Below, piece by piece: positions 21,394-54,309 of a stretch of DNA of 64,000 nucleotides. The stretch spans positions 17,774,094-17,838,093 of the forward strand of contig OY986967.1 in NCBI GenBank assembly GCA_963920575.1, read 5' to 3'. The notes beneath the pieces are model-generated. The model saw nothing but the letters and a program-made list of their open reading frames with translations. It ran no database searches and was not told the origin of the DNA. The DNA comes from Narthecium ossifragum (lineage: Eukaryota; Streptophyta; Magnoliopsida; Dioscoreales; Nartheciaceae). Positions within the stretch are counted from its first letter, which is position 1; each line of letters opens with the position of its first letter. The position numbers and the translations under genes are program-made.

Positions 21394-23029
21394 ATCGCTG
21401 CAGCGGTACTACCGACCGCTGCCAGCCGATCCGCAGCGGGTCCCGGCATTACGACGGTAGCACGACCGTCGACCACAGACTCCTGCAATAGGAAGCAACC
21501 CCGAAAACGATGATGAACAGTAAACAATATAATATTATATTCCGAAATATAATATTATATTCAAAACACTCAAAAGTTCTCTACTAGAGGCTAATTGATC
21601 TTGTCGATCCGACATCCCAACGACGTCGGATTCAAGATCCAACATATTCATTAGTAGATGTATATACCAGGATCAACATATCCAAAATCTATAATCATCC
21701 AACGGTTGGATTAACAGGAAACAACTAATCAAAACCGTTAATCAAACTAACTTGCTAATTAATTGCTGCAACGCAGCCCTCCAGTAAACAATTCATAAAA
21801 AATCGTACGAAAATTGGAAAATTATGAAATCAGTTGGGTTAGAGAGTAGATTCAAAGATCTACAACTCTTATGCTCATCACAACCCAAGATCATGTACGT
21901 ACCGGCCGAAAAACGCGCCGCAAGCCGACTGTTCTTCAAGAACAGTAAAAACCGGAAAATCTGAGGTTAATCATACATAAAACCTACTAAGATCTCAACT
22001 AAAGATCATAAAACTCATATCAGAAATGATACTAGGCATGAGGAAACCAACAAGACAAAGATCAACAAGATCCAACGGCTAGATTTAAAGAAACCCATTA
22101 AAGAACACAGTAGGTAGAAGAACCTACCTGAAACGCACTTCTTGGCTGATTCCCTGCGAACTGGTCACCAACACAGCTCCAAACCACTTCAAGGATCTTC
22201 CTCTCGTTGCCACGGTTCCAACAAGCCTTGGAACACTCAAAACGGTGGCCGGAAGAGGGAGAACGGTGAAGAAGAAGGAGCTGCCGGAGAAGCAGGGGAA
22301 GAAAACAGAGCCGCGGGAGAAGAGAAAGAAGGAAGATGAAGAGAAGAGAAGAGAAGGAATGAAAAGAAAGGAAAGAAGGGAAAAGGGGGAGGGGAAACCC
22401 GGGAAGGGAGGGGAAAAGGTGAAGGAGGGGAAGGAAAGTCCTCCCCTTCTGACAGGAGAGAGCGACGGCCAACGGCGGCCGTCCTCTCGAAGCAGAAAAG
22501 CCACCGACACCGAGTCCGATCGATCGCTCCAAGGAGCGATCGATCGCTCTCGAAGGAGAAGCCAGTCCGGATCGATCGAACACCAAGTCGGATCGATCCG
22601 AGACAGGCTGGATCGATCCAACACCAAGTCGGATCGATCCGAGAAAGGCTGGATCGATCCAAAACACTTGGATCGATCCGAACGGGTAAAAAAAACCACC
22701 GACTCGCTCACGAGCCCGATCGATCGCTCCCAGGAGCGATCGATCGCTCAAGGTCCGTAAGCTGCCCAAAAGCAAGCTTCCGCGGGCCCGAGCTGGGATC
22801 TTCCGATCCCGGGTCCACCTAATCATTCTAAACAAACACTAACACATACAAGGTCAGTGTGTGCACACGCGGGTGTGAAACAAACCAACCATGCACAATT
22901 TACCAAATTGCTCTTGTGGTCCAAGAAACCATGCGATCCACCGGATCGCGCGCTCGACGCGAAGCAAACCAACGAGCCACGGGCCTGACCCAGCCGGTCG
23001 ACCCAGGAGTAGAGGGACGGGTCCTCACA
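21394..23029 (-). repeat. Solo LTR, U3 side
   Basis: Reverse complement of a long gypsy LTR start: TGTGAGGACCCGTCCCTCTA, GGTAAATTGTGCATGG and CGGGATCGGAAGATCC match the start of the LTR at 30563. A leader-like segment with CTACCTACTGTG lies at about 22105-22125. A 245-codon open frame on the minus strand (22098-22835) runs through the palindrome array and has no recognisable domain. Confidence 0.82.
22518..22745. repeat. GATCGATC array, regular 19-21 bp spacing
   Basis: GATCGATC starts at 22518, 22538, then 22570, 22591, 22611, 22632, 22652, 22671, then 22718, 22738. Spacings inside groups are 20; 21, 20, 21, 20, 19; and 20 bp. This is the most regular array in the window. Confidence 0.92.
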
Positions 23030-23734
23030 ACCTATCCACCAAGCTTACGGGTGCTTGACAACCTTACAATCACTCCAAACTCTATTTTGGATATTTCTCT
23101 CAAAGTCTACATCACACTTGAAGTAGTTTTACAAAGGTATAGCTCACTAATATAGAGATAGAACTTTGCGAGAATATTATTACAATAATCCCTTAGCTCT
23201 CCCTAAGCTCCAGCCAAATTTGCTGCAACTTTTCTTTTATAGCTGAGCTCAAAAGCCCTTCAAATATCCTCCCAACGGCTATTTTCTGCTTCTACAATGG
23301 CTCTTTAACGGCTTTTTTCCTGGCTGGCGGTCGACCGTCGCATCGTCCGTGACATCGTGCGCCAGGTTCCTCTTGAGCCACGGTCGACCGTGACACCGTC
23401 CATCAGGCTCTGTTGTAAAAACCGCTTCTCAGGGTCGATACCTCGTTGGACCGTCGCACCTCCAAGACATGGTCACATAGCCCACGGTCGATCGGTCCAT
23501 CGACCGTAACATCGACCGTCGCCTATTTTTCCATGAACTGCTTCCACGGTCGATCGTTGCATCAACCACCATACCCTACGATCAATCCATGCTTCGTCCG
23601 TTGCATCGACCGTAAGTATAAAAACACAATGGAATATGATTTTAATGCTTTCCAAATTAAGGGATATTAATATAAAACCAATGTTTTATCATCAAACATA
23701 TATTGACATCATCAAAACAATATTAGGACAAACA
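23030..23734 (-). repeat. 5' LTR of copia element, part 2 (LTR 5' end)
   Basis: Resumes after the solo LTR with the second ACCTA copy. Collinear with 6313-7052. It ends ATTAGGACAAACA, so on the minus strand it starts TGTTTGTCC. Confidence 0.88.
23331..23605. repeat. GGTCGACC-type array in copia U3
   Basis: CGGTCGACCGTCGCATCGTCC with TCG cores at 23331, 23343 and 23355 (12-bp steps), then further CGGTCGACCG, CGGTCGATCG and CATCGACCG units. It lies upstream of the minus-strand TATA near 23240. Confidence 0.8.
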
Positions 23735-24705
23735 GGGTAGAGACTAGCATGACGTTTTGACCGAGATTTTGTAGGGTTACCTTAGTAAGTAAGAAATGTT
23801 TTAGATCTCATAGTATTCTACTGACATTTGTGGATTTAACGTAGTTTGTCGATAAGCATACCTTGTATGGTTTGTGTTTCCTTTAAACTGCTTTATTTGC
23901 ATGCTTAGTATAAATGGGTCGAAGGTATGTCCTTTCTTTTCCTTGTGGCTAACCGAGGGAGTCATGCCCCTCGGGAATGTGTAGAATAAATGGGTCGAAT
24001 TTGTGCCCTACTGCTTTAATATAGCCCAACTGATGGCCGGCGTGCGCCAGGGGTAGTAGCGTAAAATACTTGAATTGTTTCTTGAATAGATGTTTGATCT
24101 AGTTGGTTACTTGGCCGGTAGAACTATCGTTGTATTTGCAGATCAGTTATGCTCGGGATAACTGTGGAACCTTAGCCTGTCGAGTGCCGGAGTGCACTGA
24201 AGGCTATTGTATAACGACCTTGTCGACTGTTGTTCTAGAATCAAGTTGGATTCTTTATATTGTCTTAGCTTAATTGTTGAACTCATATGATGATGTGACA
24301 TATAGTGATATCTAGGCTAGATACTTGCATAGGTTCATGCACTGTATTCATTAGAGGCATTTCAGGTTAGGCGTGGGTGATGGGTCAGTTGCCGATCTGA
24401 GGCTCTCGGGTAGCTCGGTTCTAGCTTTAGGGTTGAGGATGGGTACTAAAAATAGGGCGTGATTGTACTAAGTTGGAATCTTGTATTCTTGAGGTTGGTG
24501 CCTAGCTGGCTATAATAATTTTCGATTGATGTGTAGAGGTCACCCAGGGATCCAGTCTCAGTCTCAGTATTTGTGTTAGGGGAAGTTACGTGCCACCATG
24601 TGTCCTACGCCCTTTTGTTACAGTGCTTGGTTGTAGAGAGAGGGATGACTGTCGACAATGGAGGTCACAGAGCACGTGCCTTGTGATACGCCTTGAAAAG
24701 TGTCA
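23735..24705 (+). repeat. Gypsy LTR, second half (continues from 6028)
   Basis: R/U5-side sequence of the long gypsy family: GGCTAACCGAGGGAGTCATG, CCTCGGGAATGTG, GGAACCTTAGCCTGTCGAGTGCCGG and GGGTGATGGGTCAGTTGCCGATC. Truncated near 24705, where an Athila/Tat LTR begins. Confidence 0.6.
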
Positions 24706-26237
24706 TGGTGGTCTTAACAAGAACGCGAAAATTAGAAATTTATAATCCGAATCACTAACTAACTACTTTAGGGGTAGATAGCAATGAGTCCGAGTCGGTT
24801 CACATGGAAAAGAAATATTAAGTCTAATTACCTTGTGTAGTTATGAATCAAAAGTTAGGAAAAGGAAATGATAATTGGTCTTTAAACCACTCTTAACTAG
24901 AATTAAACTAATATGGAATAATAATCTGATGAGAATAAGCTAAGGATTTCTAATCCGTAATAAAGAACTATCTAGGCTTTCTTAGAATAAGAGCAAATCC
25001 ATAGATCATAAATGGTTTCCCAAAGGTTGATAGAAGAATGGCTAGATCTACCTATCACTCAACGAATATCTATCAGAATTCTTCATTGGAATGAGATCAA
25101 CAAAGAATGGATATTTAGTGAATAAGTCAAAGTGGTTCTAGCACTTCGAGGGAGCCAAATCAATAATAATAAGGAATAAATGACAACTTAGGAATATAGG
25201 TTTCAGTGGTTCTAGCACTAAGGTAGTGGTTCTAGCACTCCTATAATCTTAATCTAGGGTTTAGGATTCATAAACATAGATCAATCATAGTTCTAGCATG
25301 AAAGTATCATGAAACAATCCCATCCCTAACCTCTAACATGAACAAGACCTGGATCTAGGGCATAATAGAACAAATCATTCATCCACAATATAAATCAACA
25401 CCAAAAAGATATAGAAATAAAGGATTTATCTATTTAAAACCATCAAAAGAATACATGCTCTGATCCATAAGAAGCCCTAGATAATATCTTTAATACATCA
25501 TAGAAATCCCTAGGGTAGAGCTTAGTTACTCATCTTAAAGAGAAGATCCATCAATGAAAGTTGATGAATTTTTTCCGCCATGGATTCCCCCCAAGAGATT
25601 CTCAAAAGAAAAGTTTAAAAGAAGAAAAAGAAAACTGAGAGAAACTTTCCCAGCCAAAAGAAGAAAAAGACGCCCCCAAAAACCCTAGAAAACTTCCAAT
25701 TTATAGCCTGGTAAACATCCTTAACTCGGATTAGATCTGGGCATTTGATTTTCTTCACGGATAATGGAATGATTGATCTTCATAGGGTGAAGATCGATCA
25801 GTTAGTTTGTTATTGCTGGCTGCATCCCGTAAAGGATCGGTCATCTTCCTAGACGATGATCGATCATTTTCTTGTATGATGGGTCACGCCCCGTGGGTGA
25901 TCGAGCATTCCATGAAGGAAGATCGATCTCTTCAAATCTTGTTCTCTGTCACTGTTGACGTACATAAATGATCGATCCTTTCATGCTTGATGATCGATCC
26001 CTTGATGTTGTGCTCTCTGTCAGGTTAATGCATATAAACGATCAATCTTCTCATGCTGTGATGATCGATCATTTATGCTGAAATTGCCCTAATGCGCTCA
26101 TTTTAGCTCCAAACATGATCTAACTCTTATTAAGGTCTTTTGTACCTGAAATAGGTTAAAAATAATTAGTGAAGCATTGCTCAGAGACTAACAAAGCCAA
26201 TTACAAGGGTGATTTGTGTACTTTTCAAGTTTTATCA
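24706..26237 (-). repeat. Athila/Tat 3' LTR of the disrupted element
   Basis: On the minus strand it starts TGATAAAACTTG next to the PPT-like AGTTGAGGGGTG (26238-26250). It ends near TGGTGGTCTTAAC at 24705-24710. A minus-strand TATA (TATAAAT) lies at about 25699-25705, with a leader holding many splice- and poly(A)-like signals below it. The exact outer end is uncertain by a few bases. Confidence 0.7.
25771..26070. repeat. Five GATCGATC pairs, 21-23 bp within each pair
   Basis: Start positions of GATCGATC or a one- or two-mismatch variant: 25771/25792, 25835/25858, 25899/25921, 25970/25992 and 26040/26063. Pair spacings are 21, 23, 22, 22 and 23 bp. Pairs are 41-49 bp apart. The nearest unit is about 65 bp upstream of the minus-strand TATA. 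Confidence 0.92.
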
Positions 26238-27700
26238 CACCCCTCAACTTGATCTTTGCTAGTCTTCGAGCAAAGTAAAGGATAAAAATAAATCTAACTA
26301 GCCACTTTCGTAGGTCTCACGATTGCACTTATCATATGCAACAAGCCTTTAAACCCCGGGGTTAACCCAGTAGAGGAGTTATAGTCTCCTGAGAGTTTTC
26401 AGGGATGACACCCACAAACATTTATACATTCCCTTAAATATGCTATTAGAAATCCATAATAATATTCATCAACTTTAATGCATGACATAGAAATACTATG
26501 CATGAATAAACCCTTCAACTCATAGTCACATAAAGATATAGCAAACCAAACATGCCATAACATATTTATAATACTTTAGCATACTTACTCATGATTAAAA
26601 ATAACTTTGACACTCTTGTGTGTGAATAGAGTTTCACATGTTTCAGAGTATCAATTATATCTAAACACTTCAACTATTCAAAATCACAATCCTATTCAAG
26701 CACATATCTTCCACTTACCACTTAACAATCTTTGTTTTTATTCCTTCTTTTTTTAACTTCTCGGGGGATTCAACTGTTTTACGTGACCACCATGCTGATT
26801 AGGCACACTGCCCGGTTACTAAGTTGAAAATCCTTTCCTTTTATAAAGAACTTTGCATTGGCAGGCAATTCAACCGTTTTATGTGAACACCACGCTGGTT
26901 AGGCACACTGCCCGATTACTAAGTTGAAAATTCTTTTTTTTGCATATTCAGATAATTGCATGTGTTCATGTATTTTCTGTGACATGACATAAAATTGAAA
27001 ATCCATCATAGTATCATGCTTAGAATCTAATATAAACTCTTTAACATGTGAAAATGAACATGTGCATTAGGATATGTCAAGCTACCCTTAAATCATGGTA
27101 AAAGTGTTAAAGTATAGAAATAATGTCATGCATAGCAAACATTTACTATCCCTTATACGGCATACAAGTATCAGAATAATTCATAAAATAAATTTCTAAA
27201 ACATGCATCTTTATCAATAAATCTCATAATTTCATCCTTTTGCCATATTTTAAGGGATGTATAATATGTGGTCATTTAAAAACTTAAGCATGAAATTTAT
27301 GAATGCTACCCCTCAATTTAAGCGGGATTGTGCTCAAGCACGGATGTAGGGTGAGAGAGAGATAACCTGATGATGCTTCTAATGAAACAGTAACGTTGGT
27401 GATAGTGAAAACCGTATTTGCTGAGCAAGGTTAAGCGTGAAAACCATGTACATTCGTGATGTCGTAATGCATCGCAGCAATATGCATACCATAACAGAGA
27501 GACCCTGGAAAATAGCAAAGGGAATACCCCATGATTGCAAAGAAGGAACGAATAGAATATACATGCAAAATTAGAGAATAATTGGGTAGCATCTCCTCTA
27601 TTTATTCAAGCACAAGGGCTACAAAATTTCCATTGACCTCTGCTGTATGTAGAAACAACCTGTACTCCAACAAAAGAAATAAGGGTTATTAACATACGTA
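26238..27700 (-). other. Athila/Tat 3' non-coding region
   Basis: Lies between polyprotein and 3' LTR. It is collinear with 41143-42300 and 47499-48620, so it belongs to a shared family backbone. It begins (minus strand end) with the PPT, then the CACTTTCGTAGGTCTCACGATTGC and GTTATAGTCTCCTGAGAGTTTTCAGGGATGACACC blocks (split here for length), both shared by all three elements. No coding region is recognised. Confidence 0.7.
26766..26936 (-). repeat. Conserved duplicated 3'-UTR motif
   Basis: Two copies, about 67 bp each, of TTCAACTGTTTTACG then GAACACCACGCTGGTTAGGC then ACTGCCCGGTTACTAAGTTG. The outer TTCAAC and GTTGAA are complementary, so each copy can close as a stem. Also found at 41806-41871 (one copy) and at 48036-48103 and 48127-48193. 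Confidence 0.75.
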
Positions 27701-27705
27701 CCCCT

Positions 27706-28025
27706 AAAAACTTGCTAAATAACATATATACCCCTACATTCTTTCATATTACATATATACCCTTACAAACATCAAAAAAATCCAAACCATACCCCTCCGT
27801 CCTCACACCGTTAAAAATGCCTTATAAAATGACCATTTTGCCCCTTATTCATGTTTATTAGGATTCAACTCATAAGGGTATGATAAGGGCAAAATGGTCA
27901 TTTTATAGGGCGTTTTTAACGGTGTGAGGACGGAGGGGTATGGTTTGGATTTTTTTGATGTTTGTAAGGGTATATATGTAATATGAAAGAATGTAGGGGT
28001 ACATTTGTAATTTAAAAAGTTTTGG
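27706..28025. mobile_element. Fold-back MITE, near-perfect long inverted repeat
   Basis: Left arm 27706-27846 and right arm about 27880-28025 are near-exact reverse complements over about 135 bp. For example CATATATACCCCTACATTC pairs with GAATGTAGGGGTACATTTG, and TACCCCTCCGTCCTCACACC pairs with GGTGTGAGGACGGAGGGGTA. A short spacer contains TTATTCATGTTTATTAGGATTC. No ORF. The superfamily and target duplication could not be settled by eye. It is inserted in the Athila/Tat 3' region. Confidence 0.85.
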
Positions 28026-28156
28026 AAGATTCAAAAGTAATTATCGGACAAATGGAAAAGAAAAGGAAATGAAAATAAAACCTAAAGCAACCCTAAATCC
28101 TAAAGCGTTATGCATCCTTTAAACACATCCTAAGCTAACAAAGGCAGCCCAACTCC

Positions 28157-29234
28157 TCAATCCTCGTCAATCTCATCCTCACTATCTTCGTCCACAGAAT
28201 CAACTTTCCAGGAGGGAGAGAATGAAGAACTGTCGGAGTCATAGTCGCTGGCCACAAGAGTTGTCGGGCGGTCTAGATCATCGGACACGTATGGTGACTC
28301 CGCAGGCGATAGGAGTGCGGGATCAATGAGGGATCGTGGTGGCACGACAATCGTGGAACCGCCAGGACTCTAGAATCAAACCCATGGATCATCAAGTTGT
28401 GGGTCATGCTGAATGTCATGGACGACACGAGCAAGCAGATCTGCAGGTAGTAATGGCCGGTAGAATTCAACACCGGAAGGGTGGACTTTGACTGGACCCG
28501 AGGAGGGAAACATAATACTGTCGGTGGGGATGGTGGTGCCAAAGAGTCAGCCGTGCTTACCGAATCAGCATCACTAGAGAACCAAGATGTTTGCGACACT
28601 GGAGATCCTGGTTTGAAATCAGATCGTGGGGAACCGGGAGGACTGCCTGCAGATGGACAGGATGACGGGCTAGAGCGAGACATCTCGGAAGTAAATATGA
28701 AGAAACAACGTGGGTATGGACGGATGAGCAAGATCAGAAGCTCTATTGCATCGTCGACGTCAATGACGAGACCGCTGAGGAGAAGCCGGTTGGCGATGAT
28801 CGATGGGGGCAAGTCATGAAACAATGAAGAGTTGGGAAGGGGGTTGACGGTGATTAAATATAGGAGCTTGAAAATTGAGTTGAAGTGGGACTACCCTAAC
28901 TAAACGAGATCAATTCAAAAACTAAGAAAAGAATATGAATAGAGTTGGACAGGGACTAGAGCATTGGATGATGGAGACGGAGTTGGAGTTGGACGGGTTG
29001 AAGAAAGGGTTGTCGATGCTGCTGGAGGTGGGCTTGTCGAAGGTCCGGAAGGCGATGGTGCTTGCCTGATCGGAGTAGCGAGCGGCGGTCGGGTGGAGGC
29101 CTTCCCCTTGCTGACGGGATCCCTGTTGGCGGCAACCTTCTTGTGGCCCATTGTGTGGGGATGTAGGGAGGGTAAGGTGGAAGTGGATTGCCAGTAGAGT
29201 TGAACTTTGGCCAGCAGCCCTCGTCGGATAACAC
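28157..29234 (-). other. Pro/Ser-rich open frames in Athila/Tat 3' region
   Basis: Overlapping minus-strand frames (28273-28824, 28915-29151, 28956-29234) encode low-complexity Pro/Ser/Arg-rich peptides such as SPSSCPSAGSPPGSPRSD. Similar C-rich stretches occur at the same relative place in the two related elements (43247-43951, 49322-49873). No known domain is seen. They may be remnants of an extra ORF or just GC-rich non-coding sequence. Confidence 0.35.
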
Positions 29235-29738
29235 CGCGGTGATGGGATATGAGGGAAATGTGGAAGATTAAGGGGTGATTGAGGGAGGAGTAGAACCAGA
29301 CGGTGGTCGCGAATGGGAAAAGGAGTCGGACGAGAGGTGATCGGGCCGAAGGAGGTGGTGGCGCACGGGTCGGAGGTGCTGAAGAAGAGAGGCGGTGGGG
29401 TGCAGCGGAGAGAAAGGGAACAAGTGATCGATCTTAGGGCATAAAGTGTGAGGACCTGTTCCTCTACTCCTGGGTCAACCGTCTAGGTCCGGCCCATGGC
29501 TCGTTGTGGACCGCAACGGCAATTTGGTAAATTCCGCCTTGTCGGTTTGTTTCACAGCAGCGTTGTGCACACACGGCCTTGGATTGTGTGTTTGATTAGA
29601 TTCTTGTACGCGTTCTCGATCGAAAGATCAGAGCTCGATCGGGGAAGATCAAATCGGACGGTCGAGATTAGATCTCGTAGCTTGCTGAATCACCCTGACC
29701 CAGTCACCGTCCCTGTAACAGGTCAGTTCACGACCCGC

Positions 29739-29746
29739 TATAAATA
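29739..29746 (+). promoter_or_regulatory. TATA box of solo LTR
   Basis: TATAAATA in CCCGCTATAAATACCCCC, 293 bp into the LTR, followed by a C/T-rich stretch typical of a start region. Confidence 0.75.
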
Positions 29747-30339: not shown

Positions 30340-30480
30340 CAACCACCAGACTCCACGGTCGACCGCCGTGGTCTCCGTGGTTAACCGTGAGCGTTAAAAT
30401 CACCATAATAACACCTCATGGTCGATCCGTTGATCGACTGTCAACCTCCACTTCTCCACGGTCGACTGTGACATCGACCG
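30340..30480. repeat. GGTCGACC-type array in solo LTR
   Basis: CACGGTCGACCGCCGTGG, CATGGTCGATCCGTTGATCG and CACGGTCGACTGTGACATCG units, 890-1035 bp into the LTR. The nested sister LTR carries GATCGATC units at the same offset. Confidence 0.8.
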
Positions 30481-30844
30481 CCAGCCTTGAATAGGGTTTT
30501 TTCATGGTTCTGTCATCGAATTTCTTTCATGATAGATAGCCAATGGTGTTAGGAATCTTGCATGTGAGGACCTGTCCCTCTACTCCTGGGTCGATTGGCT
30601 GGGTCGGGCCCGTGGCTCGTTTGCTTGTTTCGCGTCGAGCGTGCGATCCGGTGGATCGCATTGTTTCTTGGACCGCAAGGGCAATTTGGTAAATTGTGCC
30701 TTGTCGGTTTGTTTTACACCTGCGTGTGCACACACTGACCGTGTTGGTGATAATGTTTGTTTAGAACGGTTAGATGGACCCGGGATCGAAAGATCCGGAC
30801 TTGAGCTTGTGTTCTGGCCCAAGTTTAGGTTCCTGCACCTAGAT

Positions 30845-30977
30845 GATCGATCATTCATTGCTAGAAGGATCGATCATTTAGTGATGATCGATCATTCATC
30901 GCTGGAAGGATCGATCATTTGGTGCTGGGAGTTGCGATCGTCATGAAGGATCGATCATTCCTCCTGGATGATCGATC
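30845..30977. repeat. GATCGATC array upstream of TATA
   Basis: Six exact GATCGATC units start at 30845, 30868, 30886, 30909, 30949 and 30970 (spacings 23, 18, 23, 40, 21). The last ends 24 bp before the TATA box. Confidence 0.93.
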
Positions 30978-31000
30978 ATTCATAAGTCGGTTCGTTCGTC

Positions 31001-31007
31001 TATAAAA
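31001..31007 (+). promoter_or_regulatory. TATA box of nested solo LTR
   Basis: TATAAAA in TTCGTCTATAAAACGAACG. Confidence 0.75.
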
Positions 31008-31350: not shown

Positions 31351-31585
31351 GATCGATCATTCTTGAGGAATGATCGATCATTCTGGGTTGGTCATGTTTA
31401 GCCCGGGAAGAATCGATTATCTGGTTGGAGATGATCGATCGTGCCCCTTGGCTGACATGGGCGAGGTCCTTGGTTACGAAGGTGATCGATTTTCCCTGGA
31501 GGGAAGATCGATCCTTTGTAGCTTGACAAGGACTGAGCGTTCCCATCACGAGTGTGATCGATCATCCCCCTAGAAATGGTTGATC
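31351..31585. repeat. Second GATCGATC array, paired units
   Basis: Pairs start at 31351/31372, 31410/31433, 31484/31506 and 31556/31578 (one- or two-mismatch variants included). Spacings are 21, 23, 22 and 22 bp. It lies downstream of the TATA box, so it would be transcribed. Confidence 0.9.
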
Positions 31586-33780: not shown

Positions 33781-34574
33781 TAAAGATCTAAGTCGGTCAT
33801 TGACCTTTATATTATTTTTTTAACGCTCTTCACAAATGATCGATCTTCCTTGGGTGCGAAGATCGATCATTTACCACGTGGAAGCATCTCATGAGATATG
33901 CTTTATGGTTTTGTGATGTGTATAAGTGAGCCAGATCGATCACTTTGGGCTAAAGGATCGATCATACTCACTTGGTCATTCTGCTTTGAAGGGAAGATGG
34001 AAAGATTGATCATGTGCAAAGAATGATCGATCCCCCAAAAACCATCTCTCTGTCACAACTAGTGAACAAAAATGATTGATCGTCTTTCATAGAATAATAG
34101 ATCATTTTGAACCTCAGTCCCTGCCTCGTGGTGTTCCCGCAGATGATCGATCATCGTCTTTAGGAAGATCGATCATCTTAATTACCACGCTCTGTTTCAA
34201 CGGGTACATATAAAAGAACGATCATCAAGGCACTGATGATCGATCATCTTAACACCCAGGTTCTGTTTACGTGTGGTGCAAATAAAGATCGATCGTTTCA
34301 TCCTAGGAAGATCGATCATTTGCACCAAAATCACAAAAACTGTGTTAAAACGTGGTAATTAAGCCTCTAACCTTGTATAGATTAATACTAACCCCTCTAG
34401 GGCCTCTAAACTTAAGCAAGAACATCCCAATCGAATGATCAAAAGAAAAATTCAGCAACGACAATTACGGCATCACAATCAAACAAATTAAAAGCAACTG
34501 AAAAACACACCAAAATCAAGCATGCAACTAACTGGAAAAACAAACAACTAGTGAACAAAAAACAAAGCAAAGAT
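33781..34574 (-). other. Athila/Tat region between integrase end and 3' part, with array
   Basis: Non-coding continuation of the element, downstream of pol on its own strand. GATCGATC or near variants occur in pairs at 33838/33861, 33934/33956 and 34004/34025 (23, 22, 21 bp), with more to about 34320. The rest is AT-rich. Confidence 0.75.
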
Positions 34575-37322: not shown

Positions 37323-38563
37323 TGATGAATAAATTTTATATCTCGTAAGTATACGAATCGGTGTGGTCAGTATCGCGGCAAGAGGAGTATTATACCCACA
37401 GAGATTTGTAAAGATTATTAGAGAAAAACGCTAAAGAACAGAGAAGAAAGAAAATAAGGAAGGTAAAGTAAGAAATAAGAAGTACCGAAAATAGAAGATC
37501 TAATAACGAAATAAGAAAATGATGGAAATCTGATGGATGAAGACTAAGGTTCTGATTTCACCATAACATCCTCATTCTATGCATTGAATCAATAAAATCT
37601 CAGTTTAATTCCTAGGGTTCGTTCTTCATGTATGATTATCCGTTCGATCGCGGTCCTCACCAAGTACCCTCTATTAAGTTTTGCTAATGAACCCATAGCT
37701 AAGTGTCAATCAAGAATCCATTAAGCTTTGAAGAACAATTTTGAACCAAGAATTGTCTTAGCTTGAACCCGACTTCGACATAAACTCATTCATTCATAGA
37801 TCCTGCAAGATTAGGGAATGAACCCTCGCCCAATCTCACATAAAACAGTCCATAATATTTCTATTGGCCAGATAAAGGTATTTAAGATCTCAGTTATAAT
37901 AATGAATGAAACAAGGAAAATAAACTGATTAAATAAGCATGAGTCCATAACATAGACTGATTCTATTAGGCTACATCGGTACATTAGAAAAGAAACTAGT
38001 CACCCATGTTCATCATGAAGACGACAAAAGTGTTCAAGGAAAAACAAAGAAAAAAAGACGAATAAAACAAAACCCTAACATAGCTTCCTCTCCTCTAGAT
38101 CCTCCAGAAAAGTCCTCCTAGAAGTCCTCCAAAAACTTTCCTTTTGATAACCTTAAGCATCCTATTTATAGGCTTAAGCTCGGGTTAGGTCCGGATCCGT
38201 TACACACTCGCAGCTGATCATGCGGTCGACCGTGAGACCTGACGGTCGACCGTCAACCGCACAAATTTATTTAGACAAGTGGCGGTCGATCTTTGCATCG
38301 AACCTGAGAAATTTTTTTCTTGACAGAGGCTCATAGTCGATGTCGCGGTGGATGCGACAATCGATCGTGATTATTTTGAGCGCGACAGTCGACCTCGCGG
38401 ATGATGCGACGGTCGACCGTCACTATTCATTCAGCTTGCATCATTGGTACTAAAAATACTATAACTTCTTCTAGGAAACTCAGAATCACGAACCGTAAAA
38501 TTCTCAAGAAACTAGACTTCAAGAGCTTTCCAATAATATATTGCACATCATCTAGTTCTTGGA
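37323..38563 (-). repeat. Athila LTR, truncated copy
   Basis: Plus-strand start TGATGAATAAATTTTATATC is the reverse complement of the end of the LTR at about 53650-55104. Homology continues through CTACAAATCTTTGTGGGT, the poly-pyrimidine region and the TATA (minus strand TATAAATA, 38163-38170). It stops at the CATCTAGTTCTT block near 38563, so the LTR start is lost. The flank CATAC at 37318-37322 has no partner visible. Confidence 0.8.
38224..38418. repeat. GGTCGACC-type array in Athila LTR
   Basis: TCGA cores at 38226/38246 (20 bp), 38337/38361 (24 bp) and 38389/38413 (24 bp) in GGTCGACC, GTCGATG and GTCGACC contexts. It lies 55-250 bp upstream of the TATA box. The homologous LTR at 53650 has GATCGATC units in the same position. 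Confidence 0.85.
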
Positions 38564-46075: not shown

Positions 46076-46080
46076 AAACC

Positions 46081-46345
46081 CTACTTGGCACTGTTGCACA
46101 CCCTACTTGGGCTACATCGATGATGCAGGTCAATGCAGTTCCTTCCTTCAAGTGTTCTTCTAGAAAATGACGTGACACTCTCGAGGTGCTCGAGGATTTA
46201 GAACTTAGAGGAGTTTTACACCGTTTTCTTACAATTTCACATTATGATGTATAAATTAAGATATAATCTGATGTATTTGAGGACAGAATTTTATAATCCC
46301 TAAATTCATGTATTTGAGAACATTTGAAACTTTCATTTGAAACTT
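46081..46345 (+). repeat. Gypsy LTR fragment, 3' continuation
   Basis: Continues 38564-39792 after removal of element 1: CACCCTACTTGGGCTAC, GCAGGTCAATGCAG and GAGGTGCTCGAGG match the CTACCCGGGCTGC, GCAGGTG and GGTGCTTGAGGAG landmarks of sister LTRs. It breaks at 46345 into an Athila/Tat LTR at a short direct repeat (TTTCATT). Confidence 0.6.
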
Positions 46346-47498
46346 TCATTATTAGTCTTCTCTAGTTATCATCTTGTTCCCTTCTCTCAACATTATGGAT
46401 CATATGGCTACAAGCTCACATGAATCCCTAAAATAAAGTTAATGTTCCCAACGGCATAACCTATCTTTGCTTGGCATAGATTGTCTTTGGTCCTACGATT
46501 ACCTTAAATTATACTACTCCTAATGACCGTGGCACAACCTATCTTCGCATAGCATAGCTTATCTCAAAGGCAAACCAAATACTTCATGAAAACCATCTCC
46601 TAAATCTCTCCAATCAATCACAGAAATCATATAGGACTAAAAGTACGTCAAGGGAACTCTATTCCTTCAACTCTATTAACAATAAAACCATATTCATGAG
46701 ATCATGTCTTGAGAAGATTACAAGATTCAAACCAAAGAAGATAGAAAACTACATTAGGGTTTCATGAATAATCCTACATTAGTAACTCATCTTTTGGATG
46801 AACGCCGTCGGGTTGGAATATGAAGGTGTCACCATCCACATCCTCTCCTTCTTCTTCTTCCTCCTCCAAAGATAGACAAAAAGATCAGAAGTTTTGCTGG
46901 AATAACCCCTTTTTATAATAAAACCCCTTAATCCCGGAATTAGGGTTAAGGCTAAGTTGAGTTGGGCCTCTAGTGCAACTCGGAATTCCTAGTTTAATCC
47001 TGTCTGCCTCTTCTGGTCGCGACTGGGTTCAATCCATCCGGAATTAGGACATGTACTCAACAGGAAAGATGTAGATTAGGAGGTCTTCTATCCTCCCCCA
47101 AAGATTTTATAATATTTGGAGTTAGCTAGAATATTTGGCGAATATTCTCCCGCACGTTGACGGACCAGTCTTTCAGCAGCTAAATATCTTCATCTTCTTC
47201 AAAACTGCTATCCATCCATCAGGAATCTCTGAAAGTGTCCAACATAAAAGTTGTACGTCTTGATGTATTCTACATGTCACCCAAATTTCAAAATATTTGG
47301 ACATAATAATAATTTCTGTTGAATATTATGCTAACAGTCGACAGAGCAGTGTATTTCAGCATATTCACCCTTTTTTGTAATTTCTAGCTTGAATCTTCAT
47401 TAATCCTGAAATCAACTAACAAACTATCAAATACAAACACTCTCGGCCTAACAAAGGTAATTTAAGGGGTTTAATTATAAATATTTAGTGACTCATCA
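46346..47498 (-). repeat. 3' LTR of element 2, truncated
   Basis: Begins TTTCATTATTAGTCTTCTC, equivalent to 52010 in the other LTR, and ends GACTCATCA before the PPT. Confidence 0.9.
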
Positions 47499-50101
47499 CA
47501 CCCCCTAACTTACACTTTGCTAGTCCTCGAGCAAAGAAAAGATAAAAAAAAAAACAGTAAATCTAACTAGCCACTTTCGTAGGTCTCACGATTGCACTTA
47601 GCATGTGCAACAAGCCTTTAAACCCCTGAGTTACCCCAGTGGAGGAGTTATAGTCTCCTGAGGGTTTTCAGGGATGACACCCACAAACATCTATACATTC
47701 CCTTGAATATATCATTTGAAATCAATCATAATACTCATCAACTCTAATGCATGAAATATAAATAATATCCATAAATATACCCTTCAACTCATAGTCGCAT
47801 AAAACCATAGTAAATCAAAACATGTCATAACATATTTCCAACACTTCAACATATTTAAGCATGATTAAAAATAACTTTAACACTCCTGTGTGTGAATGGG
47901 GTTCCACATGCTTCAGAGCATCAATTATATCTAAACATTTCAACTATTCAAGATCACAATCATATTCAACACATATTTTCCACTTATCACATAACAATCA
48001 CTGTTTTTTTTTCTTTTGTTTTCTTTTTTCTGCTGGAATTTCAACTGTTTTACGCGAACACCACGCTGGTTAGGCACACTGCCCGGTTACTAAGTTGAAA
48101 ATCCATTTTTTTTTCTTTTTTTCAGGAAATTCAACCGTTTTACGCGAACACCACGCTGGCTAGGCACACTGCCCGATTACTAAGTTGAAGATCCTTTTTT
48201 CTTTTTCTTTTTCTTTTTTTCTTTTTTTCATACTCAGATAATTGCATGTGTTCATGTATTTTCTGTGTCATGACATAAAATTATAAATCTATCCCAGTAT
48301 CATGCTTAGAATCTAATATCAACCCCTTAACATGTGGAACTGAACATGTGCATTAGGATATGTCAAGCTATCCTTAGATCATGATAAAAGTGTTAAAGTA
48401 TAGAAATAATATCATGCATAGCAAAAATTTACTATTTCTTATATGATATACAAGTCTCAGAATAATTCATAAAATAAATTTCTAAAACATGCACCTTTGT
48501 CAAATCATATCATAATTTCATTCTTTTGACATAATTCAAGGGATGTATAATATTTGGTTACCATAAAAATAATAAGTATGAATTCCTAGAATTCTACCCC
48601 CCAACTTAAATGTAATTGTCCCCAATTATACTAAGACATAAAAATAAATCAAGATGTAAAGGGTAGAGATAACCATAATGAACGCCTCAGAAATAGATTT
48701 CTCTCTCTTCCAATTTTAGTTTAGGCATCACCATCATTGAATAAATACTTCCTTCCCCACCATAACCTGTCACAGAAATATATACCATTCCAAAAATATC
48801 AAATATAACAAATAAAAGTCCAAAAAGGTATTAGAATCATAGAAAATTTCGGCAGAGTCTCATTTGTATTTTCATGATATATTAATCTGTACAAACATTC
48901 ACTACATAAAAATATAACATGTACAGATAAATAGTAAAGGAGATAATATATCAAAAATAATCTTCTAGACATCACAGATAAAGAAATAAACAACCAAAAT
49001 ATCTTAGCAGAGCATCAAATTATTCGTAACCCGTAGTATGGTTGTTCTCATCCACGGTCTGCAGCCCGCGGCGAGATCAGAAATAAAATCGGCGAAAATA
49101 TGAAGAATTTAATATTGGATGTTGCTCTAGGACGTCTAGAAGATCAAAGAATGGTCAACATGGTCCTTATTGAAGATCTATACCGTCCGATCGAAAATCG
49201 GATCACTGTGGCACCTGGATCATGTATAGCCCAATCGGACGGCTGAGAACTCGGAGCCGATGATCGACGGTGAAACGGCGTCGTCGAAGGACGGGAAGGG
49301 TACAGGAAGAATCGTGGAAGCCTAAGGAGTCCTCCAGTGAGCTCTGATCGAAAAATGGAGGTCCCCAGGTGGTAGAACGGAGGTGGCCGGATCGGAGGAA
49401 GTGACGACCGGAATTGAATTCCGACGATCGGAGCTCAAATCAAGGACGGTACCGATTGAGAAAGAATCGTGGAAGGCCAAGGAAGTGTTATATGGGGTTT
49501 GATTGAAGAATGGGGCTTCCAGGCGGCGGATAGGAGGTGGTCGGAGTTGTGGATACCGCCGGGGTCGGACACAGTGATCCAGCCAGCAAACAATGGTTTT
49601 GATGGTGGAGGAAGCTTCGTGGTAGCCGGAGGAAGGTTCTGGAGGGATTAATGGGTGATGGGCGGCATGGGATGAGGAGATCGGAGACGGCCGGCGGTAG
49701 CGGAGGGGCTCACTGGCGTCGGAGGAGAGGGTTCCGAGGGAAGAGGAGGGCGATATCGGAAAGGTGGAAGGATGGCGATGGTGTTGGTGCTGGTTTGGAG
49801 GGTTGAGGGCGGCCAGAGATGCTGCAATGGGCGGCACTGGGTAACGGCTCGGGGACGAACCGCTTGAAGCCAAGCGGAGCCGAGACGATGATGTCCCGGC
49901 TCGCTAGAGAGCCGATCGGGAAAAGAGAGAAAAAATCAAAAGAAAATTGGCGAAAAAATGAAAGAAAAACGAAAAAATTATGGAAAAATTCTATAAAAAA
50001 TCAGGAAAAACTCCTAAAAATTAGGAAAAATCGTAAAAATTAATAGAAACTCCTAAAAAGCTGGGTTGCCTCCCAGTTAGCGCGCAATTTTACGTCTTTC
50101 G
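47499..50101 (-). other. 3' non-coding region of element 2
   Basis: Collinear with element 1. Two copies of the conserved ACGCGAACACCACGCTGG/CCCGGTTACTAAG motif at 48036-48103 and 48127-48193, separated by T-rich runs. A 183-codon Pro/Ser-rich frame (49322-49873, minus) has no recognised domain. GCTGGGTTGCCTCCCAG at 50061 marks the former polyprotein end. Confidence 0.7.
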
Positions 50102-51316
50102 TTAGACGCTCCCGAAACAAGATTTAGGAGGCCGATGATTCCATGTGAAGAAATACATTGCCTGAATCATGGTGAAGGTATGCATACATGCTTCATCAAA
50201 GAATAAAAAGAAGTCCTTAGCAAACAACATATGCATAAAACTAGAAATTTTGATACGATCTTTGATGAAAGGACGATAAGAATTGGCATGGTCTTCACTC
50301 ATAACAAGGTTCTCCTCCTGACAAAGTTCAACTAATGGGGATGATATTAAAGGTAGAATCTCAAACTGAGGCTCTAGAGAAGGAATATTGCTAACACCCT
50401 CATTATGTTTATCACTAATATGCACATCATCATCATTCAACTGATCATGTATAAGTTCAACTTGAGGTTCCTGACAGGGGGTTTCACTAATATGCTCATC
50501 CTCATTATGATCATTGTAAATAGACATATTATCATCATGAACAACCGACGATTTAGCATAACAACCATCATCATCACTATCATCAAAAAAACTTGCTTCA
50601 TAAGAATGACCGAAATACATATAAGGCCCAGAATATACATCCGGATAGCATTCATCAACATCATCAACTGTATCATCCAAAGTTGATAAAACAATATTTT
50701 CAGCGGCTGGTAAAACATTATCAATATCATCATGAACTGGCAAAACATCATGAGCATTATAGCATGCATCAACATCATTAGAAAGATAAGCATCACAAGC
50801 ATTGTCATCATTAACAAGAGGAATAGAATCATTCGCATAATCCTCATTCTCATAATACAAATCAACCATGTGGGCTAGTTGTTCTATTTGTATCTCTATT
50901 TTCTTAATTGATTGATCATTAGAGTTAACATCTTTTTCAAGTTTTGCCATCTTAGCATTCATGTTATTCATACTAGCATTCATGTTATTCATACTAGCAT
51001 TCATGTTGGCAAGTGTACTCATGATTGTGTCCATAGTCGGGTTAGATGATGCTTGTGAAGGATATTGTTGTCCAAAACTAGGTTCAAAATTTTGGGCCGA
51101 TGTTTCTATGTTCCATGGTTGAACATTAGGAGGTTGATAACCATCAAATTTCCAATTAGGGTTTTTATGATTTCTAAAATTTGAATTATTAGGATATGAA
51201 TGTGAATTATATGTCGGATTTGAGAAACCATATGTGTCATTATTATATGCGGGTCCATAACCAAACGGCAAATCATTATTCAGCATGGCACCCGGTGGCA
51301 TATAAAAATTAGCCAT
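50102..51316 (-). CDS. 404-residue ORF of element 2, probably Gag-derived
   Basis: Intact minus-strand frame starting MANFYMPPGAMLNN and rich in Asn, Tyr, Pro and Gln at the N-terminus (for example NFRNHKNPNWKFDGYQPP). This is followed by a Met/Asn repeat (MNASMNNMNASMNNMNAKMA, near residues 105-125) and KKIEIQIEQLAHMVD. That order (Asn/Pro-rich, then a short coiled coil with QI.QLA) resembles the end of Athila/Tat Gag before protease. An acidic middle (YYENEDYANDSIPL...DDSDDDG) follows. The tail ends by joining the sequence near the former polyprotein end. No capsid core, zinc knuckle or enzyme motif is seen. It is the longest open frame in the non-autonomous elements; its function is unknown. 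Gag origin is inference. Confidence 0.6.
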   Translation of the reverse strand: MANFYMPPGAMLNNDLPFGYGPAYNNDTYGFSNPTYNSHSYPNNSNFRNHKNPNWKFDGYQPPNVQPWNIETSAQNFEPSFGQQYPSQASSNPTMDTIMSTLANMNASMNNMNASMNNMNAKMAKLEKDVNSNDQSIKKIEIQIEQLAHMVDLYYENEDYANDSIPLVNDDNACDAYLSNDVDACYNAHDVLPVHDDIDNVLPAAENIVLSTLDDTVDDVDECYPDVYSGPYMYFGHSYEASFFDDSDDDGCYAKSSVVHDDNMSIYNDHNEDEHISETPCQEPQVELIHDQLNDDDVHISDKHNEGVSNIPSLEPQFEILPLISSPLVELCQEENLVMSEDHANSYRPFIKDRIKISSFMHMLFAKDFFLFFDEACMHTFTMIQAMYFFTWNHRPPKSCFGSV

Positions 51317-51703
51317 GCATGCAAGATCACATAAATAATGACCACACCAAAGATAAGAAATACAAACAGTGGGCTGGTCTAAGAGACGACTGTCGCTGAT
51401 ACGTGCTTTTGTGCGACTAGCAGAAGCGTCTCAAATAGCTAGATAAAATAACTCGGAGTTTAGAAAAAACTTACCTGACTACACAGTTCCGATCGGTCGC
51501 TCCCGTGTCCGACCGATCGCTCTTGGCGATGGGCTGCAGGTCCAAGTCCGAGAAAATCAAATTTAGTAGCCGTAAAAATCAGAAAAATTGTCAGAAATTC
51601 CTAAAAAGTGCAAAATAAAGAAAGGGAAAAACTGAGAAAGAAAAAAAAATCTAATTAAGCAAAGAAACGAGTTAAGAGAAAATCAATTAGTTAACCGTCG
51701 AAA

Positions 51704-51720
51704 TCCCCGGCAACGGCGCC
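51704..51720 (-). other. Primer binding site of element 2
   Basis: GGCGCCGTTGCCGGGGA on the minus strand, six bases from the LTR. This is the Athila/Tat-type site (tRNA-Asp in Athila). Element 1 has the near-identical site at 44678-44694. Confidence 0.85.
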
Positions 51721-51726
51721 AAAAAT

Positions 51727-53167
51727 TGATCGCTTACAAACGTCGTCGTTAAAATGTTGTAAACTCAATCAAATATTAAATTTATAATCCTTATTCAATC
51801 ACTACACTACTAGGTAGAAATAGCGGTGAAGTCGGGAGTCGATCCACAGGGAAAAAGTTGGAAATCAAAATCAATTCTCAAAACCCTAAAACTATGGAAA
51901 AGAATCAAAGATAGAATAGAGTCATCTAACTAATAAAGAAAATAAAAGGTTGATCAATTTGAATCAATGGAGTAGTTACTTAGCAATTACTCAATCCACC
52001 CTAGTTTCATTATTAGTCTTCTCTAGTTATCATCTTGTTCCCTTCTCTCAACATTATGGATCATATGGCTACAAGCTCACATGAATTCCTAAAATAAAGT
52101 TAATGTTCCCAACGGCATAACCTATCTTTGCTTGGCATAGATTGTCTTTGGTCCTACGATTAGCTTAAATTATACTACTCCTAATGACCGTGGCACAACC
52201 TATCTTCGCGTAGCATAGCTTATCTCAAAGGCAAACCAATAAATTCATGAAAACCATCTCCTAAATCTCTCCAATCAATCACAGAAATCATGTAGGACTA
52301 AAAGTACGTCAAGGGAACTCTGTTCCTTCAACTCTATTAACAATAAAACCATATTCATGAGATCATGTCTTGAGAAGATTACAAGATTCAAACCAAAGAA
52401 GATAGAAAACTACATTAGGGTTTCATGAATAATCCTAAGTATAAGAATTAGCAACTCATCTTTTGGATGAACTCCGTCGGGTTGGAATATGAAGCTGTCA
52501 CCATCCACATCCTCTCCTTCTTCTTCTTCCTCCTCCAAAGATTGACAAAAAGATCAGAAGTTTTGCTGGAATAACCCCTTTTTATAATAAAACCCCTTAA
52601 TCCCGGAATTAGAGTTATGGCTAAGTTGAGTTGGGCCTCTAGTGCAACTCGGAATTCCTAGTTTAATTCTGACTGCCTCTTCTGGTCACGACTGGATTCA
52701 ATCCGTTCGGAATTTGGAAATGTGCTCAACAGGAAAGATGTAGATTAGGAAGTCTTCTATCTTTCTCCGATGAGTTTATAATATTTCGACTTATCTAGAA
52801 TATTTGGCGAATATTCTCCCGCACGTTGACGGATCAGTTTTTCAGCAGCTAAATATCTTCATCTTCTTCAAAACTACTATCCATCCATCAGGAATCTCTG
52901 AAAGTATCCAACATAAAAGTTGTACGTCTTGATGTCTTCTACATTTCACCCAAATTTCAGAATATTTGGGCATAATAATAATTTCTGATGAATATTATGC
53001 TAACAGTCGACAGAGCAGTGTATTTCAGCATATTAACCCTTTTTTGTAATTTCTAGCTTGAATCTTCATTAATCCTGAAATCAACTAACAAACTATCAAA
53101 TACAAACACTCTCGGCCTAACAAAGGTAATTTAAAGGGTTTAATTATAAATATTTAGTGACTCATCA
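51727..53167 (-). repeat. 5' LTR of element 2
   Basis: 1,441 bp, starting TGATCGCTTACAAACG and ending GTGACTCATCA on the plus strand. A minus-strand TATA (TATAAAAA, about 52579-52586) lies in ACCCCTTTTTATAATAAAACC. Confidence 0.9.
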
Positions 53168-53649
53168 ACGGTCGATGTGGTGGTTGGTGCACAGATCAAC
53201 CGCGGAGACTTTTTTTACTCGCGGTTGACGCACAGATCGACCGTGGAGACTGGTTGTGTGTTTAATACTCTGACTAAGTGTTGGTTTGAAGGGATAGCCG
53301 TTTTTAATGTTGTAGGCCAGCGGACGATTTGACGGTCGATGCACCAATCGACCATGGACTATGTGACTTTATTTGCAGAACCGACGATTGAACGAGCCAT
53401 CGACCCATAATGCATCATTTTCTCATAGAGACTGACAGTCGATGCGACATACGATACGAAGGTCCACCACGAAACTTGAAGGTCGATGGGCGGTTGATCC
53501 GAGGTATATTTTGAGCGTGACCGTTGATGTGGCGGACGGTGCGAGAGTCGACCACCAGTCAGAAATATAGTCGTTGGAGAGCCATTGGAGAAAAGCAAAC
53601 TAGCCGTTTGAAGCTTGATGAGTGCATGAAAGTTCACTCTGAATAGCCT
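53168..53649 (+). repeat. Copia-like U3 fragment with GGTCGACC-type array
   Basis: Resembles the reverse complement of 6580-6930: GGACTATGTGACTTTAT, GCGGACGGTGCGAGAGTCGA and GTCGTTGGAGAGCCATTGGAG correspond in order to the copia U3. It carries many GGTCGATG, GATCGACC and GTCGACC units. Diverged and truncated at both sides. Confidence 0.55.
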
Positions 53650-53962
53650 TATCACCAGTCCAATTGCTGTATTCTTTATCCTTAATTAACCTCTTTAGTA
53701 TTGGTTTTACATTTATATGATGTTTCACAAAGCTATTTGAAATATGCAGGAAGTAGGAGTCAAAAGGAGCAAAGAAAGTGAAAAGATCACATGGGTCAAG
53801 TTCAAAGATTAAATTGTACCTGCTCGGGAAGAACTAGATGATTTTCCGTATATGATTAGAAAGCTCTAGAAGTATAGTTTTTGGAAAATTTTACGGTTCA
53901 TGATTCTGAGTTTCATAGAGGGAGTTACAGCATGTTTACTACTAATGGCGCTTACATTGAAA

Positions 53963-54237
53963 GATCGATCTTCTATGCGCTAGAGATGATAGAGAGTATG
54001 ATTTCAAAAGATCGATCTTCTCCCTATAAAAGATCGATCTCTTCTGAAACTGAAGAGATTTTTGAGACAGAAAAGATCGATCTTCTCTCTAAGAAGATCG
54101 ATCTCTTATGAAGCTGAAGCAGACAGAGAGTACCATTTCAAAAGCACGATCTTCTCCTTTAAAAAGATCAATCTTCCCTGGACGCAGGTAACTACATGGG
54201 ATGAAAAGATCGATCTTCTCCTATATAAAGATCGATC
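53963..54237. repeat. GATCGATC array upstream of Athila TATA
   Basis: Exact GATCGATC at 53963, 54010/54032, 54075/54096 and 54208/54230; pair spacings 22, 21 and 22 bp. Many extend to AAGATCGATCTT. The last unit ends 64 bp before the TATA box. Confidence 0.92.
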
Positions 54238-54301
54238 TTTGTTTGATAGGAGAGAAAAATAAACGGCCCAGATTTAATCCAAGGGGGAAGGCTTTGGAGG
54301 C

Positions 54302-54309
54302 TATAAATA
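54302..54309 (+). promoter_or_regulatory. TATA box of Athila LTR
   Basis: TATAAATA in GAGGCTATAAATAGGGGA. Confidence 0.8.

What the first reader, a model, noticed from the sequence alone, without database searches (positions are those of the whole stretch)
22518..54237. Arrays of TCGA-core palindromes at two-helical-turn spacing in LTRs of unrelated families
GATCGATC (or near variants) recurs in clusters with start-to-start spacing of mostly 20-23 bp, usually as pairs. Examples: 25771/25792, 25835/25858, 25899/25921, 25970/25992, 26040/26063; 31351/31372, 31410/31433, 31484/31506, 31556/31578; 54010/54032, 54075/54096, 54208/54230; 22570 to 22671 in five steps of 19-21. A second motif class, GGTCGACC, shows about 12-, 20- or 24-bp steps (23331/23343/23355; 38226/38246; 38337/38361; 38389/38413). 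Hosts include a copia LTR, several long gypsy LTRs, Athila/Tat LTRs and a TRIM. This regularity is not expected from shared ancestry of the elements. Two identical palindromes on the same DNA face suggest cooperative binding of a dimeric protein. Alternatively, in RNA each pair can fold into an 8-12 bp stem with a loop of about 13 nt.
Basis: partly seen in the sequence, partly recalled or inferred. Interest (0 to 1): 0.88.

Follow-up and report, generated by a model that had tools for sequence, protein, structure and literature searches.

The report
Same-face palindrome arrays in retrotransposon promoters
Jumping genes of several families in this plant carry rows of a short mirror-image DNA word, many of them right beside the element's promoter and mostly spaced by whole turns of the double helix, so a host protein likely lands on one side of the DNA there and would switch these elements on.

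Summary
Confirmed and sharpened. GATCGATC is the top over-represented 8-mer in 200 kb sampled across this 379-Mb plant genome (170 seen, 5.2 expected). GATCGATC-N13-GATCGATC occurs 15,484 times, the reversed control 0 times. Spacing peaks at 20-24 bp (mode 22), and longer spacings recur about every 10.5 bp, also in non-redundant intervals (class 1: n=67, p<5e-5; class 2, CGGTCGA/TCGACCG: n=36, p=0.0003). Arrays that precede a CTATAAA box mostly end in one helical phase with it (25-26, 56-57, 66-68, 87-90 bp). In one Ty3/gypsy family, copies 81-86% alike downstream of TATA carry different arrays (GATCGATC or GGTCGACC) in the same slot. Pair flanks are complementary beyond chimeras, but G.U and A.C mismatches balance (78/82), so RNA-stem selection is not supported. 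CGGTCGACCG is a known Sirevirus repeated motif. New: helical phasing, a gypsy version, module exchange. Best reading: promoter-proximal activator arrays read by an unidentified host protein. A 50-kb replicate was underpowered, 11 of 33 arrays had no TATA nearby, and the whole-genome in-phase count did not complete.

The parts
5623..5934 (.). Array A: loose, decayed GATCGATC sites (2 exact, several near variants); host element and orientation not determined
22518..22745 (-). Array B: 10 exact GATCGATC at 19-24 bp steps (many as GGATCGATCC), 3' of the family-T LTR start at 23029 (minus strand); no CTATAAA box found within 400 bp
25706..26070 (-). Array C (25771-26070, pairs at 21-23 bp, some near variants) and its TATA box (CTATAAA reading down from 25706), 68 bp from the nearest site centre
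30563..31006 (+). Family-T LTR start (TGTGAGGACC, 30563), array D (30845-30977, 6 exact octamers) and CTATAAA at 31000, 26 bp from the last site centre
31351..31585 (+). Array E: second array of the same LTR, starting 351 bp downstream of the TATA box
33838..34317 (.). Array F: 10 exact octamers, mostly pairs at 21-23 bp; no CTATAAA within 400 bp, host element not determined
53963..54307 (+). Array G (53963-54237, 7 exact octamers) and its TATA box CTATAAA at 54301, 67 bp from the last site centre; Ty3/gypsy family of L007
38165..38418 (-). Array H: GGTCGACC-class array (38224-38418) in the same LTR slot as array G, with CTATAAA reading down from 38171, 56 bp from the nearest site centre
23028..23734 (-). 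Copia LTR with GGTCGACC-class sites (exact at 23329 and 23382) and TATA box at 23242; 84.6% identical to the LTR at 6314-7052
6040..7117 (-). Sirevirus 3' LTR with decayed class-2 sites, TATA box at 6529, two GGGGGAG polypurine tracts just upstream (about 7117 and 7062) and a poly-C run near its 3' end
   Evidence: copia-type gag with zinc knuckle at 7750-8787
30357..30470 (+). Class-2 (GGTCGACC) array downstream of the TATA box of family-T copy T2 (LTR start 29447, TATA 29738), which lacks a GATCGATC array upstream

Best explanation
These are promoter modules of LTR retrotransposons: arrays of the 8-bp palindrome GATCGATC (or, in the same slot of a related LTR, GGTCGACC), many of them lying just upstream of a TATA box and mostly spaced by near-whole turns of the DNA helix from one another and from that box, which a dimeric host DNA-binding protein likely binds and which would drive the element's transcription. 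Shown here: enrichment of the word, pairing at 20-24 bp, 10.5-bp phasing of two motif classes, phase with the TATA box, a second array about 350 bp downstream of TATA in LTR family T, and different arrays in the same slot of one gypsy family. Inferred: that a protein reads the full octamer in double-stranded DNA, that stacking on one face helps it act with the TATA-bound machinery, and that the effect is activation and not repression. The pair-specific complementarity of flanks is, taken over all arrays, equal on both strands; I read it as a by-product of template switching between self-complementary octamers, or as a DNA cruciform feature (both untested), and not as selection for an RNA stem.
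For: Word: 170 against 5.2 expected in 200 kb; 15,484 sites against 0 for the reversed control. Spacing: 85 pairs at 20-24 bp, 2 at 25-37. Phasing: power 42.9 at 10.5 bp against a null mean of 3.2, 0 of 500; nine non-redundant array groups p=0.003; 67 non-redundant class-1 intervals, 0 of 20,000, and 36 class-2 intervals, p=0.0003; class 2 alone power 35.7 against 1.75, 0 of 1,000; other repeated words give none. TATA register: 20 cases, R=0.78, 0 of 200,000; 9 collapsed values p=0.009. Slot exchange G/H/L007. Full octamer needed: isolated GATC is not enriched in arrays, 2.96 against 4.79 per kb; 161 exact against 35 one-mismatch sites at 20-24 bp from an exact site.
Against: No protein, expression or binding data. 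11 of 33 arrays have no TATA-like box within 400 bp on either side. The independent 50 kb held 12 octamers and gave p=0.31 for class 1 and 0.083 for class 2, with no array-plus-TATA case. With one value per distinct distance the TATA phase is p=0.0014 for four values but p=0.105 if the outliers 103 and 143 are kept. Among the nine group representatives, adjacent-unit distances alone are weak (28 values, power 3.45 at 10.5). In one search periods from 10 to 11 bp fit about equally. Many arrays are related copies, so independence is approximate. Flank complementarity is not predicted by simple protein reading. Family-T upstream arrays lean to G.U (19 against 7), which RNA selection would predict.
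Confidence: 0.55

Rival explanations
1. The arrays are bound by a host protein that recruits silencing (for example RNA-directed DNA methylation); the elements carry them for another reason or have not lost them.
For: The DNA-level facts (word, phase) are the same as for an activator. In maize, Sirevirus LTR palindromes are small-RNA hotspots (PMC5311732 and PMC10760457, passages seen; the original paper was not held).
Against: Position next to TATA, phase with TATA and repeated gain of arrays in one LTR slot fit something the element gains from. CpG is not depleted in arrays (observed/expected 1.17 against 0.73 elsewhere).
Confidence: 0.15
2. Each pair is kept as an RNA stem-loop of the element transcript, serving packaging, dimerisation or processing, or feeding small RNAs.
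For: 54 non-redundant pairs: inner four bases complementary 0.56 against 0.36 in chimeras, outer four 0.54 against 0.34, 0 of 3,000; predicted folding -21.8 against -17.5 kcal/mol, lower in 38 of 54. 17 non-redundant spacers from elsewhere p=0.0006 at two bases (0.063 at one). Window pairs alone p=0.003. Stem changes in homologous family-T hairpins look compensatory by eye. Family-T upstream arrays: G.U 19, A.C 7.
Against: Over 62 oriented non-redundant pairs G.U 78, A.C 82; other upstream arrays lean the other way (32/54) and downstream arrays are even (18/16). It does not explain 10.5-bp phasing between pairs or with TATA, nor why each arm is itself a palindrome.
Confidence: 0.11
3. Neutral: tandem and inverted duplication plus template switching multiply palindromes in fast-evolving LTR stretches, and no protein selects them.
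For: Unit duplications are visible (41- and 71-bp tandem repeats). Flank complementarity is strand-symmetric and fades away from the octamers, as copying within a hairpin would give.
Against: The same exact octamer in separate LTR lineages, a second class with the same phase, and the TATA register are not expected. The outermost octamer bases are kept too.
Confidence: 0.1
4. The phased words set DNA curvature or the rotational position of a nucleosome at the promoter, without a specific reader.
For: AA/TT steps around octamers have a weak component at 10.5 bp (0.21 of the variance).
Against: Curvature does not need one exact 8-bp palindrome; two words of different composition share the phase; the AA/TT signal may simply follow the phased octamer flanks.
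Confidence: 0.06

Closest known systems
Sirevirus LTR repeated motifs (RM), PMC2829016 (section 9 and passages seen)
   Same: Many copies of a short palindrome in the LTR a short way upstream of a TATA box, CpG-rich. The Vitis motif CGGTCGACCG is class 2 here; the Tnd-1 motif ACAATCGATTGT shares ATCGAT with class 1.
   Different: The paper calls the motif Sirevirus-specific (it compared Ty1/copia elements). Here class 1 sits in a Ty3/gypsy family and in LTR family T, is the top word of the genome sample, is paired at 22 bp, phased at 10.5 bp and in register with TATA, and is exchanged with class 2 within one family. The words 'spacing', 'periodic' and 'helical' give no such result in that paper.
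Maize Sirevirus palindromes as small-RNA hotspots (Bousios et al. 2016; not held, seen only as cited in PMC5311732 and PMC10760457)
   Same: Clustered palindromes in the LTR regulatory region with folding potential.
   Different: Those palindromes carry a CGG-CCG core with a short loop (CACCGGACNNNGTCCGGTG). Here the octamers are uninterrupted palindromes set in pairs, and no small-RNA data could be used.
Plant GATC motif (YVGATCBR) read by GATA factors downstream of the TSS, PMC11525189 (abstract and passages seen)
   Same: GATC core, dose-dependent enhancement, active within 500 bp downstream of the TSS, roughly where the second array of family T lies.
   Different: 93 of 232 octamers meet the consensus, isolated GATC is not enriched in arrays, and that motif acts little upstream of the TSS, where most oriented arrays here lie.
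QuinCent segment acquired by the LTR of RLG_Quinta, PMC11302176 (passages seen)
   Same: A foreign module placed upstream of a conserved LTR core promoter.
   Different: A 162-bp segment linked to CENH3 nucleosomes, not a palindrome array.

Membership tests
Sirevirus (copia LTR at 6040-7052, minus) | Several polypurine tracts upstream of the 3' LTR, the last joined to AT and TG of the LTR start | tested here: met
   GGGGGAG at about 7117 and again at about 7062, followed by AT and TGTTAG
Sirevirus (copia LTR at 6040-7052, minus) | Poly-C signal near the LTR 3' end | tested here: met
   run of C near 6045-6055; the exact LTR end was not fixed
Sirevirus (copia LTR at 6040-7052, minus) | Copia-type gag with zinc knuckle | tested here: met
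   Retrotran_gag_2 1.4e-30 and zf-CCHC 1.4e-06 at 7750-8787; pol of this copy not examined
Sirevirus repeated motif (class 2, GGTCGACC) | Palindrome with CGG-CCG core, many copies, upstream of the TATA box | tested here: met
   CGGTCGACCG-type sites 57-90 bp upstream of CTATAAA in three copia-type LTR copies, 143 bp in the decayed copy
Sirevirus repeated motif (class 1, GATCGATC) | Carried by a Sirevirus (Ty1/copia) element | tested here: not met
   the L007/G/H family has Ty3/gypsy gag and RT, RNase H, integrase in that order
Sirevirus repeated motif (class 1, GATCGATC) | CGG-CCG core | tested here: not met
   GATCGATC lacks it; the paper's own exception Tnd-1 also lacks it
GATC motif / GATA factor enhancer | YVGATCBR consensus | tested here: not met
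   93 of 232 octamers; isolated GATC 2.96 per kb in arrays against 4.79 outside
GATC motif / GATA factor enhancer | Position downstream of the TSS | tested here: inconclusive
   about 350 bp downstream of TATA for family-T second arrays, upstream for the other oriented arrays; TSS not mapped
RNA stem-loop element | Arms complementary beyond composition | tested here: met
RNA stem-loop element | G.U tolerated over A.C on the transcribed strand | tested here: not met
   78 against 82 over all; family-T upstream arrays alone 19 against 7
Same-face activator array | Sites and core promoter in one helical phase | tested here: met
   the 50-kb replicate was underpowered
Same-face activator array | Bound by a protein and raising transcription | not testable with these tools
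   no binding or expression data

The most novel reading that the evidence does not exclude
Plant LTR promoters share an exchangeable, helically registered palindrome code: copia and gypsy elements plug in arrays of GATCGATC or GGTCGACC as enhancers, held on one DNA face with the TATA box and read by one host protein family, while the complementary flanks make each pair a cruciform-capable inverted repeat that lets modules jump between elements by template switching.
Probability: 0.3. Interest if true: 0.82.

Novelty: new variant of a known kind. Interest (0 to 1): 0.66.

Why it matters
If true, retrotransposon promoters across one genome obey a face-of-the-helix rule that can be read from sequence alone, and several element lineages depend on the same host factor. 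That factor could be found directly with a paired-octamer probe. The known Sirevirus motif would become one case of a wider system of exchangeable promoter modules, and spacing shifts of 5 against 10 bp give a simple test.

Tried and rejected
RNA-stem selection: the pair-specific complementarity is real, but over all oriented pairs the G.U/A.C test does not support it. GATA/GATC enhancer as sole reader: rejected on isolated-GATC density and consensus fit. One inherited array: rejected because related LTR backbones carry different arrays and because of the non-redundant tests. Curvature or nucleosome setting: only a weak AA/TT signal. Rfam at gathering thresholds and the tRNA scan found nothing. 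A scan of IMG/VR for triple octamers gave 39 contigs, not examined further. Distances between class-1 and class-2 sites were ambiguous (62 distances, power 7.6 at 10.5 bp but 7.8 at 12.5). The 50-kb replicate had too few sites. The whole-genome in-phase count (61-64 bp) did not complete.
Full report
What is there. The window lies in a plant-type genome of 379.4 Mb (G000, contig 5, 17,774,094-17,838,093). It holds decayed LTR elements, a copia gag (7750-8787) and a CACTA-type tnp2 transposase (14182-16419). It has 50 exact GATCGATC. In 20 stretches of 10 kb taken at set positions on contigs 1-8 (200 kb), GATCGATC ranks first among 8-mers by observed over expected (170 seen, 5.2 expected from a second-order model), and GGTCGACC is the next palindrome (20 against 1.5). 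Genome-wide, GATCGATC-N13-GATCGATC occurs at 15,484 sites and the reversed pattern at none.

Spacing. In 264 kb with 220 octamers, 85 pairs lie 20-24 bp apart (mode 22), 2 lie 25-37 bp apart, and further peaks fall near 42, 49, 62, 72, 84, 94 and 105 bp. The periodogram for 30-150 bp peaks at 10.5 bp (power 42.9; when each unit is moved by up to 10 bp the mean is 3.2, 0 of 500 as high). LTR copies are related, so I repeated this with one array per similarity group (29 arrays of three or more sites, 9 groups: power 20.1 against a null mean of 3.1, p=0.003; adjacent-unit distances alone, 28 values, were weak) and with one interval per spacer type (class 1: 86 intervals reduced to 67, R=0.45, 0 of 20,000; class 2: 51 reduced to 36, R=0.46, p=0.0003; periods 10-11 bp fit about equally). 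Class 2 (CGGTCGA/TCGACCG) shows the period by itself (264 distances, power 35.7 against 1.75, 0 of 1,000, best period 10.75), besides many 12-bp steps. Other repeated words show none. Genome-wide, the four anti-phase spacings 55-58 bp give 1,013 sites (reversed control 21) against 15,484 at the single spacing of 21 bp. An independent 50 kb (L064-L068) held 12 octamers and decided nothing (p=0.31; class 2 p=0.083).

Place in the promoter. Of 33 arrays with three or more exact octamers (window, L001-L024), 16 have a TATA-like box pointing away from them within 400 bp, 8 have one pointing into them, and 11 have neither. With at least four sites, near variants counted, in the 450 bp before a CTATAAA, there are 20 cases: nearest site centre 25-26 bp (6, all family T), 56-57 (3), 66-68 (7), 87-90 (2), 103 (1) and 143 (1) bp upstream. 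Modulo 10.5 they cluster: R=0.78, 0 of 200,000 for all 20; one value per lineage and distance p=0.009 (n=9); four distinct distances p=0.0014, but p=0.105 with 103 and 143 added. Seven of the eight boxes that point into an array stand at 348-354 bp: six are copies of LTR family T (homology), one (L015) is unassigned. So family T has a second array downstream of its TATA box.

Module exchange. G (53963-54237) and H (38224-38418) are one family: 81.6% over 751 bp downstream, 83% over 119 bp upstream, yet the slot between holds GATCGATC pairs in G and GGTCGACC in H. L007 is a third copy (85.5% to H over 869 bp, 81.5% to G over 901 bp) with yet another GATCGATC array, and it codes gag, then reverse transcriptase, RNase H and integrase, the Ty3/gypsy order. 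Its second LTR was not in the stretch, so its LTR limits are inferred. The sequence before its genes reads TGGCGCCGTTGTCGGGG, which I recall as the Athila/Tat primer site (not tested). Family-T copy T2 lacks the upstream array that T3 has; its downstream array is class 2. From recall its LTR ends resemble chromoviruses (not tested). The copia LTR at 6040-7052 shows Sirevirus hallmarks, and its relative at 23028-23734 is 84.6% identical.

Arms. Flanks of paired octamers are complementary to each other: 85 pairs, 54 non-redundant; inner four bases 0.56 against 0.36 in chimeras, outer four 0.54 against 0.34, 0 of 3,000; each site is also somewhat palindromic beyond the octamer (0.48 against 0.35). 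A second set, 17 non-redundant of 46 spacers, agrees (p=0.0006 at two bases, 0.063 at one). Among 97 oriented pairs, 62 non-redundant, G.U and A.C mismatches on the sense strand are 78 and 82. Five of the 97 come from L015, whose orientation is uncertain. Split: family-T upstream 19/7, other upstream 32/54, downstream 18/16. So there is no overall RNA-strand signal, with one subgroup for and one against it. Isolated GATC is not enriched in arrays and 93 of 232 octamers meet the published GATC enhancer consensus. Sites 20-24 bp from an exact octamer are 161 exact and 35 with one mismatch, commonest GATCAATC/GATTGATC (13), as CpG decay would give; CpG observed/expected is 1.17 around octamers and 0.73 elsewhere.

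Mechanism. The simplest account works at the DNA level: a protein that needs the full palindrome binds as a dimer, two dimers sit two turns apart, further pairs and the TATA box lie on the same face, and the array raises LTR transcription. Shown: word, spacing, phase, position, exchange. Inferred: protein, cooperativity, activation. Recruitment of silencing fits most of the same facts and is the main rival.

Known and new. Palindromic repeated motifs upstream of TATA are known from Sireviruses (PMC2829016, section 9 and passages; the Vitis motif CGGTCGACCG equals class 2) and are called Sirevirus-specific there. For the class-1 octamer in gypsy LTRs, the 10.5-bp phasing, the TATA register and the exchange of classes I found no report in the searches, whose library lacks most subscription journals.

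Noticed in passing
window 25706 (-), 54301 (+), 38171 (-); L007, L014, L017, L019, L023: A conserved box, roughly GATYTAAYCCGAG, stands about 18-40 bp upstream of the TATA box in these promoters; in L007 and H it is about one helical turn closer to TATA than in the others.
   Followed up: partly
L023 2930-3198: A mixed array: GGTCGACC-class sites nested between GATCGATC pairs upstream of one TATA box.
   Followed up: no
window 14182-17930: CACTA-type element pieces: Transpos_assoc, Transposase_21 (tnp2) and DUF4218 domains.
   Followed up: no
window 12779-12990: An exact 106-bp tandem duplication (100% identical).
   Followed up: no
window 5136-5335: A gap of 200 N in the assembly.
   Followed up: no
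L025-L063 (IMG/VR): 39 viral contigs hold three GATCGATC in a similar layout; many matches span about 106 bp. Nature and cause not examined.
   Followed up: no
window 23329-23600 and L007 1-240: Class-2 half-sites also recur in 12-bp direct steps (42 of the listed distances are 12 bp), an arrangement apart from the 10.5-bp phase.
   Followed up: no
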